From NCBI RefSeq assembly GCF_000972845.2, contig NC_040016.1:20798005-20862004 (forward strand): DNA of 64,000 bases, given 5' to 3'. The notes beneath the pieces are model-generated. The model ran no database searches and had not been told where the DNA came from. It was given only the letters and a program-made list of their open reading frames with translations. A program made the translations under genes and the position numbers. Positions within the stretch are counted from its first letter, which is position 1; every line of letters begins with the position of its first letter. The DNA is from Larimichthys crocea. Lineage: Eukaryota; Chordata; Actinopteri; Sciaenidae. Of the stretch, positions 974 through 60,559 are shown in pieces.

Positions 974-1190
974 TTTTTTTTAAAGCCTTTATTGATAGTA
1001 CAGCTGAAGATAGACAGGAAGCAGAGAGAGGGGGAGTGACACGCAGTAAATTAGCCGTCCGATGCGGGATTCGAACCGGGGCCAGCTGCAGCGAGGACTA
1101 TAGCCTCCACACACGGGGCGGTCGGTAGCGTAGTGGGTTAAGCGGCCGACCCGTGTGTGGAGGCTATAGTCCTCGCTGCAGCTGGCCCCG
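974..1190 (-). mobile_element. tRNA-derived SINE with inverted 5' end
   Basis: On the minus strand the body ends in an A-rich tail (974 onward in + coordinates) and contains a perfect pol III B box (GGTTCGAATCC, complement around 1067-1078). An 18-bp target-site duplication (gtaagtaagaaatattct) flanks it at 956-973 and 1191-1208, so the insertion is clear and young. The 5' tRNA-like head, with the A box TAGCGTAGTGGG, is not collinear. It is present in the opposite orientation (1118-1190) and overlaps the body, making a perfect 42-bp inverted repeat (1076-1117 against 1150-1191) around a 32-nt loop. Two ordinary relatives occur at 50882-51052 and 58230-58421. Confidence 0.9.
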
Positions 1191-3883: not shown

Positions 3884-3893
3884 NNNNNNNNNN
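3884..3893. other. Assembly gap (10 N)
   Basis: Ten undetermined bases sit between the two copies of the duplicated block and directly next to a CA-rich tract. True gap size is unknown. Confidence 1.
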
Positions 3894-47819: not shown

Positions 47820-48460
47820 GAAGCTGCAAGCAGAGATGGTCGGGCCCTCGCACATGTGCGCACGTCGAAATGTGCATAACATCGGTCTGATGTCTTAATA
47901 ACCACAAGAAGTTTCAGACCGCTCTGAGAAGGTGCTTCCTGCCGATTTCTTCTTTAAATTTTTTTATGGATCGCCATGCTCCCACCGTTTCCCCAAATTT
48001 ATCATTTTGATAACTTTCACTCACTATATGAACACACCTACTAAGTTTGAAGTCAATGGGATAAAATCCCTATGAGGAGTTCGTTCAAATATGACCCCTT
48101 CTCAAACAGCCTGAAAATTGGACGCCGTACGCTTCACTGTAACCCGGGTCACCAAGAGACTTTTTTGTGCGTCTGGGCATGTTACATACTCCCTCCAAAT
48201 TTCGTACATGTGGATGAAACCGTGGCGAGGGGCACCGCCAAAAACGCACACCTAGGTGGCGCTGTAGAGCCATATGTGTACGTCCATGTGCGAGACCCCC
48301 AAAATGCGTAATTTTACGCCTGTCATTGGGGGGGTAGGCAAATTTTCATGAGTTTTCGAGGGGATATGGGCCGTCGGAAATGCGATTTACTTTTAAACGT
48401 CGTTCAGCGTTAGAAATCCAATAGGGCCTCGCTCCAGCGTGCCGTGCTCGGGTCCTAATT
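47820..48460 (+). repeat. Dispersed fish repeat, class unresolved
   Basis: The stretch from gaagctgcaagcagagatgg to cgtgccgtgctcgggtccta, with an internal ttttacgcctgtcattggg, is a pattern I recognise from many fish genomes. It has no protein-coding frame of its own and I cannot define its exact ends or class. Confidence 0.5.
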
Positions 48461-48799
48461 ACATTCACATGACGCTCAGAACACGGACATATGATTATAA
48501 GAAAGTACAGGACGGTTGGGTCCAGATCTGAAGATCTGACTATGTAACAGTGATGTAAGAGTGATGTAAGCAGGGTTATAAAAGGTTGTGAAAAGTAAAA
48601 GTAAAGGGACGTTCGGATTCAGAAGCAGCTGTCACCGTGTTGTTATTTCATTACGTTTTGGAAGGTTTGAGTAACCTCCTGATGGACACATCCATTTGAA
48701 ACCAGTTGAGGACATTCACCTGGATAAACAGCATTCTGTTTAGGTACGAGTCTCTCTTCAGGCTCTCCAACTGTCTTTTTTAGAGACCTGATGTGTGCC

Positions 48800-49437
48800 A
48801 AGGAAGTAATACCCACACCACCTGCCAGTACCTGTGGCAAGACCACAGGATGGAGCCATAAATTGTACATATCACGAGCCACCTGTTAGCTGACAGTGAC
48901 AACACAGTAATAAATGAGGCCACGGTGTCCTCCATATTGTGTTTGCACCGGTTGTCAAACAATCCTATTTTGCTTTGACGATTTGCTTTGTCCCAGTAAT
49001 GGACACAGTTGCATTAGATCACTTCTCCTCCGCTACGGTCAGAACCCTGTCAGAGTTCGTCTGATTGGCTGAACGGCTCCCGAGCTGGCCAATCACAATG
49101 TTAAATGGAGCTGAACCCGTCGCCAGATGGGGTCCTCTGCTGTTACATCATGAACTGTTGAACCCAATCAGCACGTGGTGAGCCGGTGAGGTGTGAACAA
49201 ATGAGGTCATACTGTAATGTGTCAGGTGATACATATCGTGGATCACTCATGGGGGAAATTGAGGTTTAATACACCTGTGGGGTGATTACCGGGGCATAGA
49301 GTACGGGGCTATGTGTGAACTCGTCTCTTGCATCGCTAGAGGCTGTCATGTAACTATAATGTGCTTGACACGCAGACAAGCACTTTTATACATTTCTGCT
49401 GATTACAGACTGTCCCAAGGTGTCTTCCAACTTGGTC
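48800..49437 (-). repeat. Unit A, reverse copy of 54823-55453
   Basis: About 640 bases are repeated in opposite orientation at 54823-55453 with scattered differences. Read on the minus strand it begins accttgggacag, then has a TATA-like tgtataaaagtg and ends near tattacttccttgg. On the retroelement side it abuts the leader of the GT6-carrying element. Its nature (a second LTR or captured DNA) is unknown. Confidence 0.75.
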
Positions 49438-49439
49438 CT

Positions 49440-49654
49440 GGGGCAGGTTCGGTCTCCACTTGTCGACACCGTACAGGTGTGTGACGTCACACGCCCGCAG
49501 AGCTGATTATTGATCCCTCACAGTCAGACGTGAGCCCAGACACGACCCGGAAACAGGACCGGAGACGGTACGGATGGACAGGATCAAATACTTCAGACAC
49601 TGACCGAGTCCACGCGCCGGTCCGGATCACTCCCATCTGGGGTGCCAATTTTTA
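49440..49654 (-). other. Retroelement leader with putative primer-binding site, copy I
   Basis: Directly downstream (minus strand) of the LTR at 49655 comes taaaaattggcaccccagat, where TGGCACCCC is a plausible primer-binding site. A leader shared with 51901-52153, 53839-54150 and 56432-56713 follows. It ends where unit A begins, without a GT6 frame. Having a leader on the outer side of a 3' LTR means two elements share that LTR in tandem. Confidence 0.7.
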
Positions 49655-50228
49655 TGTGACGGTTTTCAGGTGTAACTATTATTTGAATTTTGTTTAGTTT
49701 TCTGGGGTGCCAGCCAGGACTCAGCCTGACAATTTAAAACTAGTTGACCTCTAATGAAAACCACACAAAGGGTGCATGAATCCAAATGACAATTCATACA
49801 ACCTTAAATCAACTACTCAACAAAACAAGATACCACTTTAAAATATATTTACACCACAAAAAACCCCAAACAATGTCCACCTCAGTTCAACTTTAGGTCT
49901 CAAAAGTTCAGTTCAGTATCAACGATTTCCAACGAAAAAAAGGGGTTCAGGAAAAAAACACAAAATCCTCCGATAGAAAAAAGGGAAAGCAACAAAAAAA
50001 AAAGTTTTTATATTCCTTGTTATTTCCAGCTCACCAGCCGACACACCGGGACTCCTCCTCCGTCATGTGGAAACAAACGTCTTTCGTAGCGGGTCCGATC
50101 TGCTCCAGGACGGACGCGTAAGGGAGTCGAGGGGCTAAGCTGCCTCAGTACTTCACTCTTACTACAGTATAATCTCCGCAGTGTGCGGGAGAAACGCCGA
50201 ACTGTCTCCTCCAAAATGTCTCGTTACA
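49655..50228 (-). mobile_element. Retroelement LTR, copy I
   Basis: 574 bp, minus orientation, from TGTAACGAGACA (complement ends at 50228) to AACCGTCACA (49655). It has TG...CA ends, is preceded by a polypurine tract and followed by the leader. It shares its sequence with 52154-53156, 56714-58510 and part of 54427-54621. At 49849-49856 it keeps tttacacc as a single copy, the empty target of the hAT element found in the LTR at 56714. Compared with that LTR it lacks about 130 bases next to its outer end. Confidence 0.85.
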
Positions 50229-50560
50229 TCCCCTCCCCCCTGAAAAAAGTCCGCACAGGTGACTCCTATCTCCAGTAAATTAGAAACCTAGAAAAGTTAA
50301 GTTAATCATTTTGAGGTCCATTCCTGAATCCTCCAGGACGACCTGGTAACAGAGTGGGCTCATTTTCTGCACCACTCTGTAGGGACCTTTCCAACGTGGG
50401 GCCAGCTTGGCTGAAAAAGACCTGTCAGCTTTGGATTGAGGGTGAGTGCGGACCCAGACACGATGGTTGTCTGTGATTTCCCGTCCCTTCTCCTTTTGTC
50501 ATAATTTAGTTTTTGTTTTTGTCCTGCTTTTCCCACGTTGGTGTTCACAAACCTTTTTAA
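50229..50560 (-). pseudogene. Polypurine tract and remnant of Gypsy-type integrase C-terminus
   Basis: On the minus strand a short frame contains LNYDKRRR and, after a frame change, VWVRTHPQSKADRSFSAKL followed by APRWKGPYRVVQKMSP and YQVVLEDSG. This is the pattern of the C-terminal part of integrase in Ty3/Gypsy elements of fish (VWVRTHP...FSAKLAPRWKGPYRVV). The rest of pol and all of gag are absent. Next to the LTR lies ttttttcaggggggagggga, a polypurine tract exactly where second-strand priming occurs. It lies between the GT6 frame and the LTR. Confidence 0.85.
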
Positions 50561-50633
50561 TTCTGTTGTGGTGTAAGCATTTCAGTCAGGATCACATCGC
50601 TGTGGCTCCAGCTCCGCGTCCAACCCGGTCCTT

Positions 50634-50871
50634 TCATTCGACATTGGGTCGAATATCAGCATAGTTCTTGACAACTCCAGAGAACCTGATGATGTGAACC
50701 TCCGGGTTTCTGGCTTTAAAAGTCCTGCTACAGGTACTCAGGTGACAGCACCTTACTGGGCTTGTTGATCCACATGTACCTGTTCAGGTGACTCTCCTCC
50801 TGCCAGGCTGCCTCGGTGCCTTCTTTGGCATCAGCCTCGAAGTTAGCGCGGCAGGTTTTGGCGAGCTGGTG
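50634..50871 (-). pseudogene. GT6 glycosyltransferase, 3' end fragment (copy IIa)
   Basis: Minus-strand translation gives HQLAKTCRANFEADAKEGT, then EAAWQEESHLNRYMW and INKPSKVLSPEYL, the C-terminal catalytic part of family-6 retaining glycosyltransferases (ABO-type WHDESHLNKY and KVLSPEYLW). At the expected tryptophan there is TAG (50728-50730). An extra base then shifts the frame, after which NPEVHIIRFSGVVKNYADIR and PNVE continue to a TGA at 50634-50636. The fragment stops at an assembly gap. Its sequence agrees with copy IV rather than with the piece right of the gap, so it probably belongs to a different copy. Confidence 0.85.
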
Positions 50872-50881
50872 NNNNNNNNNN
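50872..50881. other. Assembly gap (10 N) inside GT6 cluster
   Basis: Undetermined bases separate copy IIa from the SINE. About 60 bases of the same GT6 segment occur on both sides (50809-50871 and 51053-51117) with several differences, so the join may skip one or more element copies. Confidence 1.
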
Positions 50882-51052
50882 CTTTAATGATAGGACAGCT
50901 GAAGATAGACAGGAAGCAGGGGGCAGAGAGAGGGGGAATGACACGCAGCAAATGGCCGTCCGATGCGGGATTCGAACCGGGGCCAGCTGCAGCGAGGACT
51001 ATAGCCTCTTACACACGAGGCGGCCGCTTAACCCACTACGCCACCGACCGCC
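50882..51052 (-). mobile_element. tRNA-derived SINE inside GT6 copy IIb
   Basis: Same family as 974-1190, minus strand, with an intact B box and the full tRNA-like 5' head ending at the GT6 sequence. Its 3' end is cut by the gap. The insertion interrupts the GT6 frame right after the codons for GTEA. Confidence 0.88.
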
Positions 51053-51900
51053 CCTGCCTCGGTGCCTTCTTTGGCATCAGCCTTGAAGTTAGAGCGGCAG
51101 ATTTTGGCGAGCTGGTGGACTTCTTGCAGGAGGCCTCCAAACGCTCCCCCACAGTAGTAGAAGTCGCCCTCTCCGGTAGCGATGTAGGCTCTGGACTCGG
51201 GCCTCCGCTCATAAGGGAACTTTTTGCAGTTGTCTCTGTAGTAACCTGGATGGATCACAGCAATGAGTCCGCCCAGCGACTCGGTCCCCCAGCGGCCGTG
51301 AAACTTAGAGTCAGCGTCCAGACAGAAGATGTAGTCGCTGTTGTTACGAAGCTTCTCCTCAATTAGCTTCTGGATCAACTCCATCCTCCGAGCAGAGATC
51401 TCCTGCCAACGCTTTGAGCTTGGCACCGTCAGCTGACCAACGAAGAAGTGCTGCTCTGCTGTCTCCAGGAAGTCTTTCAGGAACATGACATACTTTCCAA
51501 CAGCAAACACCGTAGCTGCGACTGTGATGTTCTGCGGTTTGTAGATGCTGTCAAGTAGAACCGGGTTAAAGGTTCCCTCCCAGACGACCGGAGCCAACCA
51601 GGGCGTCACTGTCACTACCTCATTACGACCGCTCACGATGCTGGGCTGGTCGTACTTCAGATGGTCAGGAGCCACCATGTGGAGCTCATGACTCTGAAAG
51701 TGGACTTCAACATGTCTGCTATCAGCTGTTAGCTCCTCCTGCTCAACAGACACGAAGCTGTAGGTCAGATAGTTGGAGTAGTACAGCACTCCCAGCAGCA
51801 GAAAGATCAGCAGGATCCCCGTCAGCACATTGCGATTTAACAACATCTCACGGTCAGAGATCAGAACGGTCCTGATCCTCGACACAGACCACAGCAACAA
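51053..51900 (-). pseudogene. GT6 family glycosyltransferase, intronless copy IIb
   Basis: An open frame of about 280 codons from ATG at 51900 to the SINE. It has a type II membrane topology: a short tail, then a membrane segment (VLTGILLIFLLLGVLYY, about residues 26-42), stem and catalytic domain with TVTPWLAPVVWEGTFNP, KYVMFLKDFLETAEQHF, FCLDADSKF (DXD motif as DAD), IAVIHPGYYR and EGDFYYCGGAFGG. This is the ABO/GBGT1/GGTA1 family, which moves Gal or GalNAc from UDP-sugar to glycans in the Golgi. Host GT6 genes have several introns, but here there is none. Between HFFVG and QLTV about 24 residues with the expected YYVFTD-type UDP-binding motif are missing. The C-terminus is cut by a SINE. 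I infer an inactive processed copy inside a retroelement. Confidence 0.88.
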
Positions 51901-52153
51901 GTCTTTACTTTAGTTAGTCTTTGTTGGTCCTGGTCCTGGTGCAGGTTTAGTCTCCACTTGTCGACACCGTACAGGTGTGTGACGTCACACGCCCGCAGAG
52001 CTGATTATTGATCTTCTCACAGTCAGGCGCGAGCCCAGACACGACCTGGAAACAGGACCGGAGACGGTACGGATGGACAGGATCAAATACTTCAGACACT
52101 GACCGAGTCCACGCGCGGGTCCGGATCACTCCCATCTGGGGTGCCAATTTTTA
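51901..52153 (-). other. Retroelement leader with putative primer-binding site, copy II
   Basis: Between the GT6 start codon and the LTR end at 52154. It contains taaaaattggcacccc next to the LTR and a region rich in gaccaggacc-like repeats near the GT6 frame. It is shared with the other leader copies, so the GT6 frame is preceded by element sequence and not by a host promoter. Confidence 0.75.
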
Positions 52154-53156
52154 TGTGACGGTTTTCAGGTGTAACTATTATTTGAATTTTGTTTAGTTTT
52201 TTGGGGTGCCAGCCAGGACTCAGCCTGACAATTTAAAACTAGTTGACCTCGATACACGATATATATCTCAATATTTTTATTTCTACTGTAAATCACTATG
52301 AATGTGAAATTCAACCCTTTGATGCAAAAAATAACATCAGTATGATGATTCAAGTAGACCCTTCTATTAGATTAGTAACAGCTGCGTCCTCTGCCCTGCG
52401 TCAACTCACACCGGGCGCGTCTTGGCAGCGTAGCGAGCCGGCCGTATTCACGCGAGATCACGTGAGAATCCTGAACGTACGCGAGACCCCGCGATAAACT
52501 GTGTATAAAGAAAACAACAAACAGCTGACTTTGCTTCTCCGACATGGAGGAGATTATAAAAAGCATCTGTTGTGTCAAAAATTATTGTGTGATGTTCCAC
52601 TTCAACAATTAGTCTCTCGTCGTTCATGTTGAGACCCTTTGATCGATTGACTGATCACCTGGTGGGGAAGTGTGCTGCGTGCTGTGAGCAGCACCAGGAG
52701 TGACACAGGCAAGACTCTGGAGAATTAAATGCAGACATTTACGTGACAAGTACTCGATGGTCGCGATATAGTCATTTCATACATCTCACGTAGAACAAGC
52801 CGCGATATATCGAGTATATTCGATATATCGCCCACCCCTATTTACACCCCAAAAAAACCCCAAAACAATGTCCACTTCAGTTCACCTTTAGTTCTCAAAA
52901 GTTCAGTTCAGTATCAACAAAAAAACAACTGGCTTCTTTTTTTCAGTTTATTTCCTGCGAAAAATAGGTTCAGGAAAAAAACCCCACTAAATCCTCCGAT
53001 AGAAAAAAGGCAAAGCAACAAAAAAAAAAAAGTTCCTTGTATATTCCTCGTCATTTCCAGCTCACCAGCCAATACACTGGGACTCCTCCTCCGTCATGTG
53101 GAAACAAACGTCCTTCGTTGCGGGTCCGATCTGCTCCAGGACGGACGCGTAAAGGC
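52154..53156 (-). mobile_element. Retroelement LTR, copy II, disrupted
   Basis: Starts (plus orientation) TGTGACGG like the other LTRs and reaches gacggacgcgtaa at 53152, where it is replaced by another repeat instead of continuing to the outer end. It contains a hAT remnant (52251-52840) whose left end and adjoining LTR bases are deleted. Confidence 0.8.
52251..52840. mobile_element. Truncated copy of the LTR-borne hAT element
   Basis: Its right end (CGCCCACCCCTA followed by tttacacc) and interior match the complete element at 56928-57765. The left terminus is missing and the sequence joins gttgacctc of the LTR directly. Confidence 0.8.
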
Positions 53157-53762
53157 CAACTCACACCGGACACGGAACGGAAGCGGAACGGCACCGGCGC
53201 GGTCACTGTAGCAAATAGAATCCAGTCTAGTCAATGAGAGCACTCACACCGGGCGCGGATCAGAAGCGTCCCAGAAGCGGCTCTCCGCGCCACGGCGCCA
53301 GCTTTCCGCAGGATTTCTATTTTTTCTGCCGCTGCTAAACCTCGTAAATTTCAACAGAGCACTGCGCACCAGACAGGAAATCCGACACAGAATCAACATA
53401 ATAAACTTCCGACCCCCTTTCAAAATAAAACACAATACGCAGTTCATGTAGCTTTTTACAACTTCACATCAACGTTACGTCATGACCGGTGGCACCAGGT
53501 GATCAAAGATCGATCAAAGGGTCTCAACGAGAGACTAATTGTTGAAGTGGAACATCACACAATAATTTATGACACAACAGATGCTTTTTATAATCTCCTC
53601 CACGTCGGAGAAGCAAAGTCAGCTGTTTGTTGTTGTTGTTTTCTTTATACACAGTTTATCGCGGGGTCTCGGGTATGTCCAGGATTCTCGCGTGATCTCG
53701 CGTGAATACGGCCGGCTCGCTCCGCTGCCGTTCCGCGGCTGATACGCGTCCGGTGTGAGTTG
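53157..53762. mobile_element. Inverted-repeat element with caactcacaccgg ends
   Basis: About 600 bp begin caactcacaccggacacgg and end with the inverted gtccggtgtgagttg. Much of the interior is an inverted relative of the middle of the hAT element at 56928-57765 (the sections around the catgttgagaccctttgat motif). There is no coding frame. The class is uncertain, and it may be a rearranged piece of the same hAT. Confidence 0.6.
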
Positions 53763-53792
53763 ACGCCGGGCAAAGTACCGTTCCGCTGCCGT

Positions 53793-53802
53793 NNNNNNNN
53801 NN
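53793..53802. other. Assembly gap (10 N)
   Basis: Undetermined bases at the switch from minus-oriented element II to plus-oriented element III, so the inversion point is not actually sequenced. Confidence 1.
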
Positions 53803-54150
53803 GCCCAATGTCGAATGAAAGGACCGGGTTGGACGCGGCACATAAAAATCGGCACCCCAGATGGGAGTGATCCGGACTGGGCGCGTGGACTCAGTCAGTG
53901 TCTGAAGTATTTGATCCTGTCGTCGGTACCGTCTCCGGTCCTGTTTCCTGGTCTGTCCGGGTCGCGTCTGGGCTCGCCTGAACTGTGAGAAGATCAATAA
54001 TCAGCTCTGCAGGCGTGTGACGTCACACACCTGTACGGTGTTGACAAGTGGAGACTGAACCTGCCCCAGGACCAAGACCTGAACCTGAACCTGCCCCAGG
54101 ACCAGGACCAACAAAGACTAACTAAAGTAAAGACTTGTTGCTGTGGTCGT
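53803..54150 (+). other. Retroelement junction and leader, copy III (plus orientation)
   Basis: The first 36 bases (cccaatgtcgaatgaaagg and on) correspond to the 3' end of the GT6 frame and the bases after it. They are joined directly to the LTR terminus and primer-binding region (cacataaaaatcggcacc). A leader with two gaacctgccccaggaccaag-type repeats follows. Element III therefore lacks its 5' LTR. Confidence 0.7.
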
Positions 54151-54303
54151 GTGTCGAGGATCAGGACCGTTCTGATCTCTGACCGTGAGATGTTTGTTAA
54201 TCGCAATGTGCTGACGGGGATCCTGCTGATCTTCCTGCTGCTGGGGATGCTGTACAACTCCAACTATCTGACCTACAGCTTCATGTCGTTGAGCAGGAGA
54301 GAA
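54151..54303 (+). pseudogene. GT6 N-terminal fragment (copy III)
   Basis: Reads SRIRTVLISDREMFVNRN and VLTGILLIFLLLGMLYNS, the cytosolic tail and membrane anchor of the GT6 protein, then breaks off after YLTYSFMSL at about 54303, where about 30 bases of unknown origin and a hAT end follow. No catalytic domain is present. Confidence 0.85.
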
Positions 54304-54329
54304 CAAGCCACGCCCACCGGAGGCGTTAC

Positions 54330-54621
54330 GCGCTGCGTTACGGGATATATATATTCATGTATCGCGATATAGCTTAAAATATCGAGATATTGGTTATAGG
54401 CCATATCGTGCAGCCCTAGGTGTAAATAGAATATTTTTTTAAAGAAAAGTGGTATCTTGTTTTGTTCAGTAGTTGATTTAAGGTTTATGAATTGTCATTT
54501 GGATTCATGCACCCTTTGTGTGGTTCACTAGTCAACTAGTTTTTAAATTGTCAGGCTGAGTCCTGGCTGGCACCCCCAAAAATAAAACAAAATTCAAATA
54601 ATAGTACACCTGAAACCGTCA
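54330..54621 (+). mobile_element. hAT terminus and 3' part of an LTR (copy III)
   Basis: 54330-54418 is the left end of the LTR-borne hAT in reverse (gcacgatatgg complement, ending CCCTA), followed by ggtgtaaa, the complement of its target octamer. 54427-54621 is then LTR sequence in plus orientation ending ACCGTCA. The LTR was thus already occupied by the hAT when this copy was made or rearranged. Confidence 0.75.
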
Positions 54622-54822
54622 TAAAGTGTTCCGTCAGCGTAAGAATGTCTATTACTCATTATCTTACCTGTAGTTGCCATTCATACTGTGGAGATGCAAG
54701 TGATCTTTGATCAGACTATAGAAAAAAAAAAAAGCTGAACCGTGCATTTTCAACCCCAAAAGTTCAATAACCATCTGGAGTGGCCTGCTGTTTTGCATCC
54801 CATTAACCCATCAGAATCGACC

Positions 54823-55453
54823 TTGGAAGGACCACCTTGGGACAGCTGGTAATCAGCAGAAATGTATAAAAGTGCATGTCTGCGTGTCAAGCACATTAGA
54901 GTTTACATGACAGCCTCTAGCAGTGCAAGAGACGAGTTCACACATAGCCCCGTACTCTATGCCTGCGTAATACACCCCACAGGTGTATTAAACCTCAATT
55001 TCCCCCATGAGTGATCCACGATATGTATCCACCACTGACACATTACAGTATGACCTCATTTGTTCACAACCTCACGGCTCCCACGTGCTGATTGGGTTGC
55101 AACAGTTCATGATGTAACAGCAGAGGACCCATCTGGCGACGGGTTCAGCTCCATTTAACATTGTGATTGGCCCAGCTCGGGAGCCGTTCAGCCAATCAGA
55201 CGAACTCTGACAGGGTTCTGACCGTAGCGGAGGAAAGTGATCTAATGCAACTGTGTCCATTACTGGGACAAAGCAAATCGTCAAAGCAAAATGGATTGTT
55301 TGACACCGGTGCAAACACAATATGGAGGACACCGTGGCCTCATTATTACTGTGGTTGTCACTGTCAGCTAACAGGTGGCTCGTAGATGTTACAATTATGG
55401 CTCCATCCTGGGTCTTGCCACAGGTACGGCAGGTGGGGGTATTAACTTCCTTG
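54823..55453 (+). repeat. Unit A, forward copy
   Basis: Reverse-complement partner of 48800-49437, beginning accttggaaggaccaccttg. It ends at acttccttg, where it joins the truncated 3' end of GT6 copy IV. No protein product recognised. The two copies lie 5.4 kb apart in opposite orientation. Confidence 0.78.
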
Positions 55454-56431
55454 TCGAATATCAGCATAGTTCTTGACAACTCCAGAGAACCTGATGATGT
55501 GAACCTCCGGGTTTCTGGCTTTAAAAGTCCTGCTACAGGTACTCAGGTGACAGCACCTTACTGGGCTTGTTGATCCACATGTACCTGTTCAGGTGACTCT
55601 CCTCCTGCCAGGCTGCCTCGGTGCCTTCTTTGGCATCAGCCTCGAAGTTAGCGCGGCAGGTTTTGGCGAGCTGGTGGACTTCCTGCAGGAGGCCTCCAAA
55701 CGCCCCCCCCCACAGTAGTAGAAGTCGCCCTCTCCGGTAGCGATGTAGGCTCTGGACTCGGGCCTCCGCTCATAAGGGAACTTTTTGCGGTTGTCTCTGT
55801 AGTAACCTGGATGGATCACAGCAATGAGTCCGCCCAGCGACTCGGTCCCCCAGCGGCCGTGGAACTTAGAGTCAACGTCCAGACAGAAGATGTAGTCGCT
55901 GTTGTTACGAAGCTTCTCCTCAATTAGCTTCTGGATCAACTCCATCCTCCGAGCAGAGATCTCCTGCCAACGCTTTGAGCTTGGCACCGGTAGCACCGTC
56001 AGCTGACCAACGAAGAAGTGCTGCTCTGCTGATTCCAGGAAGTCTTTCAGGAACATGACATACTTTCCAACAGCAAACGCCGTAGCTGCGACTGTGATGT
56101 TCTGCGGTTTGTAGATGCTGTCAAGTAGAACCGGGTTAAAGGTTCCCTCCCAGACGACCGGAGCCAACCAGGGCGTCACTGTCACTACGTCATTACGACC
56201 GCTCACGATGCTGGGCTGGTCGTACTTCAGATGGTCAGGAGCCACCATGTGGAGCTCATGACTCTGAAAGTGGACTTCAACATGTCTGCTATCAGCTGTT
56301 AACTCCTCCTGCTCAACAGACACGAAGCTGTAGGTCAGATAGTTGGAGTAGTACAGCACTCCCAGCAGCAGGAAGATCAGCAGGATCCCCGTCATAACGG
56401 TTCTGATACTCAACACAGACCACAGCAACAA
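55454..56431 (-). pseudogene. GT6 family glycosyltransferase, intronless copy IV
   Basis: Same protein as copy IIb, starting ATG at 56431 with a shorter tail (IRTVMTGILLIFLLL), because a stretch around the DREM residues is deleted. It shows FCLDVDSKF, so its DXD motif is DVD as in most GT6 enzymes, and QLTVLPVPSSKRW. It shares with IIb the gap of about 24 residues after HFFVG. A run of nine C (55703-55711) against CTCCCCC in IIb shifts the frame within FYYCGG. It also carries the TAG (55533-55535) and extra base seen in IIa. The frame is cut at the codon for the final arginine by unit A. Non-functional as it stands. Confidence 0.88.
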
Positions 56432-56713
56432 GTCTTTACTTTAGTTAGTCTTTGCTGGTCTTGCTCCTGGGGCAGGTTTAGGTCTTGGCCTGGTCCTGGT
56501 GCAGGTTCAGTCTCCACTTGTCGACACCGTACAGGTGTGTGACGTCACACGCCCGCAGAGCTGATTATTGATCTCCTCACAGTCAGGCGCGAGCCCAGAC
56601 ACGACCCGGAAACAGGACCGGAGACGGTACCGACCGACAGGATCAAATACTTCAGACACTGACCAAGTCCACGCGCCGGTCCGGATCACTCCCATCTGGG
56701 GTGCCAATTTTTA
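56432..56713 (-). other. Retroelement leader with putative primer-binding site, copy IV
   Basis: Same leader as the other copies, with taaaaattggcacccc next to the LTR and proline-like gaccaggacc repeats near the GT6 start. It places the GT6 copy IV frame immediately downstream of the LTR. Confidence 0.75.
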
Positions 56714-56927
56714 TGTGACGGTTTTCAGGTGTAACTATTATTTGAATTTTGTTTAGTTGGGGGTGCCAGCCCAGGACTCAGCCTGACAATTTTAAACTAG
56801 TTGACCTCTGATGAAAACCACACAAAGGGTGCATGAATCCAAATGACAATTATCTACAAACTTAAATCAACTACTGAACAAAACAAGATACCACTTTTCT
56901 TTTAAAAAAAATATATATATTTACACC

Positions 56928-57765
56928 TAGGGCTGCACGATATGACCTATAACCAATATCTCAATATTTCTAAGCTATATCGCGATACACGATATTTTTA
57001 TTTCTACTGTAAATCACTATGAATGTTAAATTCAACCCTTTGATGCAAAAAATAACATCAGTATGATGATTCAAGTCGACCCTTCTATTAGATTAGTAAC
57101 AGCTGCGCCGCGTTTTAGCTGCGTCCTCTGCCCTGCGTCAACTCACACCGGGCACGTCTTGGCAGCGTAGCGTGCCGGCCGTATTCACACGAGATCACGT
57201 GAGAATCCAGGACGTACGGGAGACCCCGCGATAAACTGTGTATAAAGAAAACAACTGCTGACTTTGCTTCTCCGACATGGAGGAGATTATAAAAAGCATC
57301 TGTTGTGTCATAAATTATTGTGTGATGTTCCACGTCAACAATTAGTCTCTCGTCGTTCATGTTGAGACCCTTTGATTGATTGACTGCTCACCTGGTGCCA
57401 CCGGTCATGACGTAACGATGTGAAGTTGTGATAAGCTACATGAACTGCGTATTGTGTTTTATTTTGAAAGGGGGTGGAAGTTTATTACGTTGATTCTGTG
57501 TTGGATTACCTGTCTGGTGCGCAGTGCTCTGTTGAAATTTACGAGGTTTAGCAGCGGCTCGCGTCAAAAATAGAAATGCTACGGAATGCTCGTGCCGTGT
57601 CGCGGAGAGACGCTTCTGAGACGCACCCTGTGTGAGTGCTCTCATTGACTAGACTGGCAGCTATCGTGACAAGTACTCGATGGTCGCGATATAGTCATTT
57701 CATACATCTCACGTAGAACAAGCCGCAATATGTCGAGTATATTCGATATATATCGCCCACCCCTA
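56928..57765. mobile_element. hAT-like element inside LTR IV
   Basis: Ends TAGGGCTGCACGATAT and the inverted ATATCGCCCACCCCTA, bounded by an exact 8-bp duplication tttacacc (56920-56927 and 57766-57773). LTR copy I has the same site once, empty. The interior of 838 bp has no transposase and includes a GC-rich part shared with 53157-53762. Confidence 0.9.
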
Positions 57766-58229
57766 TTTACACCACAAAAAAACCCAAAACAATGTCCACC
57801 TCAGTTCAACTTTAGTTCTCAAAAGTTCAGTTCAGTATCAACAAAAAAACAACTGGCTTCTTTTTTTTCAGTTTATTTCCAGCGAAAAATAGGTTCAGGA
57901 AAAAAACAAACACTAAATCCTCCGATAGAAAAAAAGGAAAGCAACAAAAAAAAAAAAACACGTTTTTATATTCCTCGTTATTTCCAGCTCACCAGCCGAC
58001 ACACCGGGACTCCTCCTTCGTCATGTGGAAACAAACGTCCTTCGTAGTGGGTCCGATTTGCTCCAGGACGGACGCATAAGGGAGTCGAGGGGCTAAGCTG
58101 CCTCAGTACTTCACTCTTACTACAGTATAATCTCCGCAGTGTGCGGGCGAAACGCCGTACTGTCTCCTCCAAAACGCTGGTAGCGCTCGCCATATTAGTT
58201 TAGCGATGTCATTTTTTTCTTTTTAAAGA

Positions 58230-58421
58230 TAATTTTTTTGGCCTTTTATGCTTTTAATGATAGTACAGCTGAAGATAGACAGGAAGCAGGGGGCAGAGAG
58301 AGGGGGAGTGACACGCAGTAAATTAGCCGTCCGATGCGGGATTCGAATCAGGGCCAGCTGCAGCGAGGACTATGGCCTCCACACACGGGGCGGCCGCTTA
58401 ACCCACTACGCTACCGACCGC
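58230..58421 (-). mobile_element. tRNA-derived SINE inside LTR IV
   Basis: Third copy of the SINE, minus strand. The B box is mutated (GATTCGAATCC) and the tRNA-like head is complete (ends ctaccgaccgc). It splits the outer part of the LTR. A target duplication was not resolved because both sides are T-rich. Confidence 0.85.
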
Positions 58422-58846
58422 GCAGCAACCTCATTTTTAATGGCCCGTCGCACCTGTTGCTAGGCGACCAGGGGGTGATCACATGGTCAGAGAAGGGTTG
58501 GCTCGTTACAACTTAGAAAGTGTGCTGAAGTGTATTGTTTTATTTAATTTATTGACGTACTGCAGACAGAATTATTTCATGTAAGCGATGCTTGAACATC
58601 ACGACACCTCTCTGCCATAAAAAAATGTCAAAATGTCTCCTATAAAAAGTGATGTGCGTACACTACTTTGTCCCATCTTGAAGGTAAATCATTTCTAATT
58701 GTAAGGATGAGGTAGCAATTGAGGCAACATGAGGCTGAGAGAAAGCGACCAAAGCAACAACCACTGTGGCTGTGAAATCGAGCCAAAGCAGAAGTGCCAG
58801 AAACTGCAAACGTTCCTCAAACGTCCACTCGAGGCTGACTGCAGAA

Positions 58847-59160
58847 CAAGTCATCCTCCATAAGCCCCCATGTTAAAAACCTCACAGCAGAAATAAACAC
58901 ATTTACAGCCTGGTACCAAAAACACTTTCAGTCTTTGAGGGTGAACTCACCTGTTCATAAAGGGTTAAAGTTACACATAATTTAGCACATTTCTGCTTTG
59001 ACTGACAGGTGGCTTGTTTGAGCAACCAGGCATCATTCAGCCGCCCTTTTAGAGGCAGGACTGGCAAGATGGCGACAAACTCTGAGGTTCACAAACTCTG
59101 CCGAGTTGCATCCCGGAGACTACATCCATGTTTTATACAGTCTATGGATGGGACCATTGG
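58847..59160 (+). repeat. Degenerate percomorph dispersed repeat
   Basis: The sequence of motifs agcccccatgttaaaaacct, cagcagaaataaacacattt, acagcctggtac, aagatggcgacaaactctg and ttatacagtctatgg follows the order of a repeat I know to be very abundant in percomorph fishes. Its class and name are not recalled with certainty. Confidence 0.55.
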
Positions 59161-60559
59161 TTCTGACTTTCAGTTGTGAAAACGGCCCTAAAGGGAATCT
59201 AAACTGGAATCAAGCTCTCAGTTCTGGGTGGTTCACAGCTAATAGAAATACTCTCCGTACACCTTTTCTCAGTGTCTTTGAATCGAGACAGCAAAACTTT
59301 TTCTGAGTATCTGCAGCTGTAAGTTACTCCAGAACTAAGAGTTACAATCTTTTCTGGTAGGAAGCAGCATAATTCATTCAGAATGCACTGAATGTCCTGT
59401 TATTCATTAAGAAATATGCACTGTGCGTGTTGAGAATTCGGCGCTTTCAAAAAAAGTACAGCACTTAAACTCAACGACGCCATTAAAATGTCTATTTGAC
59501 GTCTCATTTCCATTGAAAGCATGCTGGGAGAAAAGGGATGCTTTTTTTAGGAGGATGGAGAGTGACAGGTGATTTCTGTTTTTTCAAACATGACACATCT
59601 TCGAGATGAGGACGCTGTCCGTGATCAGGTCAACGAGGACGGTCGTCACGTACTGAGTGAAGGCATTCAGGGTTTTTTAAAAAAGTCACCGCGACGACCA
59701 TCGAGGACCGCGGCAGCTATCGGCGAGCGTGCCAAGGTTAGGCGTTCGAGCCGTTAGCTCAGTGGATTCCACTGCCAACCTTGTGTTGTTATTGCAGAGG
59801 GGGCGAAGATGAGAGAGACAGGGGATTAAACTCAACTCCCACGCAGTGGCATTACTCTATTAATCGGCTGTCTTTGTCTATCAAGGTTATAACAAGAGGC
59901 TGCATGTCTCTGAGAGAACAGGTGCATTCATGTGGAGGGTTCCAGGGTCCTTCGCTCGAGGGGCTGTTGTCGTCGTTCTCTTTCCAGTCTTCTTTTTCCC
60001 GTCATGTCATATTTTGTGTAATTCTTCCCCTTCTATGTCTTTCTCACACATTCTTCCTTTTATCTTTCCATCCCCACATTTATTCCTGTTTGTTTCCTGC
60101 CAAACATTTCCGACTTTTTTAGAATTTCTTGACGTTTCTCTTAATTATCTTCTCCCACGCATTCTGTGTCGGGTTATTTCTCATGTATTTCTTTCTTTTT
60201 ATTTTAATTTCACCTCTGTTCATCTCTGCTAATACCACTGTCATAATTTCTTTAAGTTTTGTATTTCTGGGTTTCATTGATTCTCCCGCAGATAATGGCA
60301 GTTATATTAACAGCAGGTCTGCTTTCGCTTTCTGTCCAGCAGAGCAGCATCTCTTTGAGGGTAGAAAGTGTAACTTGGACTAGAGCTGGTGTGTCAACGA
60401 GATGCTACCTGAGAATATTAAAGGATTGTGACGAGTTGGCAGGTATTCAGTGGAGATGCAGTTTTGTTCTGTTCTCACTACAAAGTCGGAAAATGTGACT
60501 TGGTCAGTTGCCCAACGGATCAAACCATGACGTACCCTTCTAGCACCATTCCTGGATAT

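What the first reader, a model, noticed from the sequence alone, without database searches (positions are those of the whole stretch)
49655..58510. LTR retroelement that appears to have captured a host GT6 glycosyltransferase
Seen: on the minus strand an intronless GT6 (ABO/GBGT1-like) frame lies between an LTR plus primer-binding-like site and leader on one side, and an integrase C-terminal remnant, polypurine tract and second LTR on the other. The arrangement occurs more than once (leaders at 49440, 51901, 53839 and 56432; GT6 at 50634, 51053, 54151 and 55454). Known: GT6 genes have several introns, and Gypsy elements have gag-pol here. Inference: a processed GT6 mRNA replaced most of gag-pol, giving a non-autonomous transducing element that then multiplied. 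I know of no described fish element of this kind.
Basis: partly seen in the sequence, partly recalled or inferred. Interest (0 to 1): 0.93.

Follow-up and report, generated by a model that had tools for sequence, protein, structure and literature searches.

The report
LTR-captured blood-group enzyme gene copy
In this fish a spliced message of a blood-group-type sugar-transfer gene was apparently copied into an LTR retrotransposon in place of most of its own genes, and, as far as this assembly shows, the hybrid multiplied only where it landed, which makes it a clear case of a known way of copying genes rather than a new roaming family.

Summary
The core observation holds and can be sharpened. 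On the minus strand the parts are a Gypsy-type LTR, a 17-nt tRNA-Arg(CCU) primer-binding site (PBS), intronless GT6, an integrase C-terminus, a polypurine tract and an LTR. The intron-bearing parent is in the same genome (contig C2976, at least 11 exons, 91-100% identical exon by exon to copy 1). So GT6 mRNA is joined directly to the PBS, and about 16 nt after its stop codon to integrase, without poly(A). That points to template switching during LTR reverse transcription, a described mechanism. A mobile family is not supported: the PBS-GT6 junction was found at 4 sites, all within 7.3 kb here. Copies share 31 sites unlike the parent and a hAT-like insertion in the LTR; a 4-bp AAGT flanks the outer LTR ends. 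One LTR-LTR comparison (4.0%) resembles copy-parent divergence (3.4-3.9%); others are higher. Later duplication in place explains the copies best. Limits: no single copy runs unbroken from PBS to integrase (a 10-N gap and a repeat intervene), and genome-wide searches for the LTR, integrase, GT6-integrase junction and flank did not complete.

The parts
58511..58514 (-). Probable target-site duplication AAGT at the 5' end of the insertion (ACTT on +)
   Evidence...CTAAGT|TGTAACGAG; same four bases after the LTR end at 54624-54627
56714..58510 (-). 5' LTR of copy 2 (TGTAACGAG...CCGTCACA), carrying a SINE-like insertion (58253-58421) and a hAT-like insertion (56906-57763)
   Evidence: start seen by comparison with the relative at C16:1953351 (L035)
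56690..56706 (-). Primer-binding site, copy 2 (TGGCACCCCAGATGGGA), complementary to the tRNA-Arg(CCT) 3' end plus CCA
55453..56689 (-). GT6 processed copy 2: 5'UTR and CDS, with a 39-nt deletion over the start codon, the shared 72-nt deletion, a 2-nt insertion, the shared 1-nt insertion and stop near the C-terminus; cut off about 4 codons before the normal stop
54823..55452 (+). Inverted copy of block U (presumed host 3' flank)
54628..54822 (+). Presumed host 3' flank, in the inverted segment
   Evidence: inference
54624..54627 (+). Probable target-site duplication AAGT after the 3' LTR end (inverted segment)
54441..54623 (+). 3' LTR remnant (ends CCGTCATA), preceded by a hAT-like remnant at 54345-54440, inverted segment
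53867..54299 (+). GT6 copy 3 (inverted): 5'UTR and N-terminal CDS, truncated
53850..53866 (+). Primer-binding site, copy 3 (one mismatch)
53804..53834 (+). GT6 3' end (RPNVE-stop plus 16 nt of 3'UTR) in the inverted segment, followed by 4 nt like the integrase side and then an LTR end
52154..53155 (-). LTR upstream of copy 1, 5'-truncated, with a hAT-like insertion at the same left boundary as in copy 2
52130..52146 (-). Primer-binding site, copy 1
51054..52129 (-). GT6 processed copy 1: 5'UTR (52129-51847) and CDS from ATG at 51846, open to the break at 51054; 72-nt and 9-nt in-frame deletions
50872..51053 (.). 10-N assembly gap (50872-50881) and a SINE-like repeat, also at 58253-58421 and near 979-1124
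50618..50871 (-). GT6 3' end: C-terminal coding part with the 1-nt insertion and stop, normal stop at 50634, about 16 nt of parental 3'UTR
50283..50617 (-). Integrase C-terminal remnant of a Ty3/Gypsy-type element (SH3_Tf2-1 domain in 50283-50498), broken by stops
   Evidence: the part upstream of 50498 is my reading of the frame
50229..50240 (-). Polypurine tract next to LTR0
49655..50228 (-). LTR0: integrase and polypurine tract on one side, PBS and GT6 5'UTR of c0 on the other; no hAT-like insertion; a deletion near its 5' end
49631..49647 (-). Primer-binding site, c0
49433..49630 (-). GT6 5'UTR of copy c0, cut off by the join to block U
48400..49430 (-). Block U, presumed host 3' flank, joined to c0; only 48788-49430 is shared with the inverted copy
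   Evidence: inference

Best explanation
During reverse transcription of a Ty3/Gypsy-type element primed by tRNA-Arg(CCU), the enzyme switched from the element RNA (inside the integrase C-terminus) to a co-packaged, spliced GT6 mRNA, entering it about 16 nt after the stop codon. It copied the mRNA through its 5'UTR and returned to the element at the primer-binding site. The cDNA (LTR, PBS, GT6 mRNA, integrase end, polypurine tract, LTR) integrated once, with a 4-bp AAGT duplication. Shown: the parts, the multi-exon parent, both junctions, and that the PBS-GT6 junction was found only here in this assembly. Inferred: the template switching itself, the single insertion, and that later tandem and inverted DNA duplications (after a hAT-like element jumped into an LTR) made the copies. 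Most likely it has no enzyme function now.
For: Parent with at least 11 exons, 10 of 10 donors GT and 9 of 10 acceptors AG, the introns absent from the copies. 5' junction directly after a PBS complementary to tRNA-Arg(CCT) gene ends of the same genome, called by ARAGORN at 4 of 9 pattern places. GT6-integrase junction without poly(A) at 50618/50617, and the same with only 4 nt of the integrase side at 53834/53835. AAGT at both outer LTR ends. 31 of 1254 columns where the copies present (at least two) share a state unlike the parent. LTR c2 to LTR0 22 of 544 against parent-copy 42 of 1226 and 42 of 1073. PBS-GT6 junction at 4 sites, all here. hAT-like insertion: same boundary in c1 and c2 on one side, in c2 and c3 on the other.
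Against: No copy is unbroken from PBS through GT6 to integrase: in the copy 1 unit a 10-N gap, a repeat and a 64-bp overlap intervene, so the whole is pieced together. Divergences are uneven: LTR c1 to LTR0 29 of 279 (10.4%), to LTR c2 23 of 316 (7.3%); parent to c3 32 of 413 (7.7%), to c0 12 of 199 (6.0%), to the 3' piece 15 of 267 (5.6%, some bases beyond the junction counted). The 3' AAGT is read from an inverted copy with one substitution in the LTR end, and four bases is little. 10-N gaps and a 224-bp identity at a contig edge leave room for misassembly. The intron 1 acceptor of the parent reads ACGG. The shared 31 sites could partly be changes in the parent. Microhomology could not be judged: 2 nt overlap at the PBS side, and no close element relative was seen.
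Confidence: 0.85

Rival explanations
1. A non-autonomous transducing element that retrotransposed repeatedly.
For: Several copies with the same junction, each with PBS and LTR end; L. crocea P0001 is a long frame without the 72-nt deletion; uneven divergences among LTRs.
Against: 4 of 4 junction sites lie within 7.3 kb; the three L. crocea relatives among 120 listed of 378 hits carry one contig length; neighbouring units share an LTR; a shared hAT-like insertion. The GT6-integrase junction, LTR and integrase searches of the genome did not complete, so this is not closed.
Confidence: 0.08
2. A LINE-made processed GT6 pseudogene that fell by chance inside a Gypsy element.
For: Intronless copy; LINEs were proposed as the main source of retrocopies in non-mammalian chordates too (PMC3136929, passages).
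Against: No poly(A) after the 3'UTR piece; the 5' end abuts the PBS; the 3' end lies beside integrase coding sequence in the same orientation.
Confidence: 0.04
3. The multi-copy and inverted layout is largely a scaffolding or long-read artefact around one true LTR-GT6 copy.
For: 10-N gaps at 50872 and 53793; 224 bp identical at a contig edge; U against its inverted copy shows 14 indels to 40 substitutions.
Against: Copies differ by about 2-7% substitutions, much for one sequence; three different annotated frames exist in L. crocea records, P0001, P0026 and P0114.
Confidence: 0.15

Closest known systems
LTR-mediated retroposition in animals (Tan et al. 2016, as reviewed in PMC5408686; passages seen; the DOI I tried for the original was not held)
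   Same: Host mRNA copied into LTR-element cDNA by template switching between element RNA and packaged mRNA; the review names mosquito, zebrafish, chicken and Drosophila.
   Different: Here the retained mRNA includes the 5'UTR and abuts the primer-binding site itself; the locus was then amplified in place.
Crocodilian ERV captures of KIT-ligand and nectin3 mRNA (PMC4299795, passages seen)
   Same: Host mRNA inside an LTR element.
   Different: There nine copies keep a KIT-ligand frame (purifying selection reported) between pol and env, and six insertions carry nectin3 in place of env, thought to have spread by retrotransposition; here one locus, gag-pol replaced, frames decaying.
Maize Bs1 retrotransposon (named in PMC5408686, passages; details recalled)
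   Same: An LTR element that took part in making host-gene retrocopies.
   Different: A plant element with parts of three genes; here one nearly whole mRNA.

Membership tests
LTR-mediated retrocopy | Copy lacks the introns of an identifiable parent | tested here: met
   at least 11 exons in C2976, their introns absent from the window copies
LTR-mediated retrocopy | Retrocopy lies between PBS and polypurine tract of an LTR element, same orientation | tested here: met
   pieced together from units, none unbroken from PBS to integrase
LTR-mediated retrocopy | No poly(A) at the 3' junction | tested here: met
   about 16 nt of 3'UTR then integrase sequence
LTR-mediated retrocopy | Microsimilarity between element and mRNA at the switch points | tested here: inconclusive
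   parental match starts 2 nt inside the PBS; the only relative seen (L035, LTR 78% similar) has other sequence after the PBS and no integrase was found near it
LTR-mediated retrocopy | Target-site duplication around the LTRs | tested here: met
   AAGT at both outer LTR ends; only 4 bp, and the 3' one lies in an inverted segment
Ty3/Gypsy element | Gypsy-type integrase C-terminus | tested here: met
   SH3_Tf2-1 above cut-off; 61% identity to P0121
Ty3/Gypsy element | gag, protease, reverse transcriptase, RNase H genes | not tested
   No systematic scan of all frames was made
Mobile transducing family | Dispersed copies with the same PBS-GT6 junction | tested here: not met
   4 of 4 junction sites in one 7.3-kb stretch; 5 of 5 candidates scored
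Mobile transducing family | Dispersed copies with the same GT6-integrase junction | not tested
   search unanswered
LINE-made processed pseudogene | Poly(A) tail at the 3' end | tested here: not met

The most novel reading that the evidence does not exclude
The hybrid was, or still is in some croaker genomes, a small non-autonomous retroelement whose only gene is a cell-surface-glycan enzyme, packaged by an autonomous Gypsy partner; near-complete frames such as L. crocea P0001 could still be expressed from the LTR.
Probability: 0.07. Interest if true: 0.75.

Novelty: new member of a known kind. Interest (0 to 1): 0.42.

Why it matters
It is an unusually complete fish example of LTR-mediated retroposition: parent gene, both junctions, primer-binding site with its tRNA, polypurine tract and a probable target duplication can all be named. 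The 5' switch at the primer-binding site fits what retroviral-type replication needs (the minus strand must end in a PBS copy for the second transfer; recalled textbook knowledge), so it is a clean natural case of where switches must fall. It also shows that several copies at one locus should not be read as mobility.

Tried and rejected
Leader as element sequence: rejected once it matched the parent's 5'UTR exons. The 72-nt internal deletion as exon skipping: rejected, because it removes part of an exon. C6:2898974 as the P0001 copy: rejected, no DNA match to window 48001-59000 at E 1e-6. C16:1953351 as an intact relative: it is a remnant with LTR and PBS; no integrase match at E 0.01 in 10 kb on either side. 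A tRNA scan of the window and an Rfam scan of 48000-60000 gave nothing. Paper searches for a GT6 or croaker precedent (20 listed of 242; 30: 8 of 8; 31: 2 of 2) and for LTR capture (3 of 3; 26: 20 of 42; 57: 2 of 2; 60: 11 of 11) showed no GT6 case in the titles and abstract starts listed; that covers only the held library. Whether the parent frame is intact was not shown: the exon model joined had edges off by a base in places and does not translate through.

Not achieved: genome-wide copy number of the LTR, the integrase piece, the GT6-integrase junction and block U, because the genome search stayed busy. Whether the window locus is an intron was not tested.

Full report
Where it is. The window is G000:C6:20798005-20862004 of a 657.85-Mb assembly in 9907 contigs. 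The closest proteins include three Larimichthys crocea entries among 120 listed of 378 (P0001 86% identity, P0026 80%, P0114 77% over 93, 79 and 37% of the query), so large yellow croaker or a close relative is likely; that is inference.

GT6. Frames at 51028-51900 and 55589-56431 (minus) match Glyco_transf_6. Against P0001 and P0047 the window holds two long copies, a separate 3' piece (50634-50871) and an inverted N-terminal piece (54190-54303). Copies 1 and 2 share a 72-nt in-frame deletion in the catalytic part; copy 1 lacks 9 nt more. The 3' piece and copy 2 share a 1-nt insertion and a TAG near the C-terminus. P0001 has the frame-shifted tail of that insertion, without the stops, so this annotated croaker protein is probably a retrocopy too. 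None of the window copies is likely to make active enzyme (inference).

Parent. PF03414 in the own genome gave 20 matches. Contig C2976 matches the window GT6 exon by exon, at 91-100% for copy 1 and 86-100% for copy 2: at least 11 exons between 102442 and 107673, GT at 10 of 10 donors and AG at 9 of 10 acceptors. These introns are absent from the window copies.

The leader is parental 5'UTR. Window 51780-52156 searched in the whole genome hit seven places: five in the window (four sites, one of them in two pieces) and two in C2976, parental exons 1 and 2. Parental similarity starts two bases inside the end of the primer-binding site.

Element parts. The PBS TGGCACCCCAGATGGGA is the complement of the end of tRNA-Arg(CCT) genes plus CCA (the added CCA is recalled knowledge). 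A pattern for that tRNA end occurs at 9 places, and ARAGORN calls tRNA-Arg(cct) ending exactly there in 4 of the 9 loci (L023, L024, L025, L029); at the other five it calls no tRNA-Arg ending there. The PBS with one leading T occurs exactly at 4 places genome-wide, three here and one at C16:1953351, where LTR and PBS recur (LTR 78% identical) but other sequence follows. The integrase C-terminus scores above the Pfam cut-off. LTR ends are TGTAACGAG and CCGTCACA.

3' junction. After the GT6 stop at 50634 about 16 nt match the parental 3'UTR, then integrase sequence begins at 50617; no poly(A). In the inverted segment the same GT6 end stands at 53834 with 4 nt like the integrase side before an LTR end takes over, which is weak support. 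In the copy 1 unit the 3' piece and the main copy are separated by a 10-N gap and a SINE-like repeat and overlap by 64 bp, so no single copy is unbroken.

One insertion. The outer 5' LTR (58510) is preceded by AAGT; the LTR end in the inverted segment (54616-54623) is followed by AAGT. In 31 of 1254 columns (parent and at least two copies present) all copies present share a state unlike the parent; in 52 columns copies disagree; 1171 are alike. LTR c2 and LTR0 differ at 22 of 544 sites; GT6 copies 1 and 2 differ from the parent at 42 of 1073 and 42 of 1226, and from each other at 27 of 1042. Capture and integration therefore look close in time. Results that do not fit neatly: LTR c1 differs from LTR0 at 29 of 279 and from LTR c2 at 23 of 316; the parent differs from c3 at 32 of 413, from c0 at 12 of 199 and from the 3' piece at 15 of 267. 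Gene conversion, unequal decay or assembly errors may be at work; I cannot tell which.

Multiplication in place. LTR0 has integrase and polypurine tract on one side and PBS and GT6 5'UTR on the other, so neighbouring units share an LTR. A hAT-like insertion has the same boundary in c1 and c2 on one side and in c2 and c3 on the other; LTR0 lacks it. Block U occurs once beside c0 and once inverted beside copy 2. This is what DNA-level tandem and inverted duplication leaves. The 4 junction sites span C6:20847437-20854720, and no other place was found (5 of 5 candidates scored, counts being lower bounds by the tool's note). In the protein collection the first 85 residues of P0001 found 5 proteins: three from L. 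crocea, all with contig length 36,252,001, and two more distant fish entries.

Mechanism and known kinds. Template switching between an LTR element RNA and a packaged mRNA is described for animals and plants (PMC5408686, passages). Crocodilian ERVs captured KIT-ligand and nectin3 and are thought to have spread (PMC4299795, passages). The structure here is of that kind, but spread is not seen. I therefore file it as a new member of a known kind.

Limits. There are 10-N gaps at 3884, 50872 and 53793. Genome-wide counts of the LTR, integrase, GT6-integrase junction and block U could not be had: the genome search answered 4 requests and was busy for the rest.

Noticed in passing
L009 (G000:C6:2895000-2903999), match at C6:2898974-2899708: Another GT6 frame of 340 codons without a stop, with no DNA match to window 48001-59000; it may be a second, independent intronless GT6.
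   Followed up: partly
window 56906-57763, 52254-52838, 53222-53778: hAT-like element (my reading; copies in both orientations) inserted in the LTRs, with an 8-bp TTTACACC-like duplication.
   Followed up: partly
window 979-1124, 50883-51051, 58253-58421: SINE-like repeat (my reading) with a GATTCGAA box in three places, two of them inside the captured array.
   Followed up: no
window 48400-49430 and 54823-55452: Block U, taken here as host 3' flank, contains TATAAAAG and ATTAAA motifs and could instead be another repeat; its genome copy number is unknown.
   Followed up: partly
proteins P0001, P0026, P0114: Three annotated Larimichthys crocea GT6-like proteins look like products of such retrocopies rather than of the parent gene.
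   Followed up: partly
G000:C2976:102970-102980: The acceptor of parental intron 1 reads ACGG instead of AG in this assembly.
   Followed up: no
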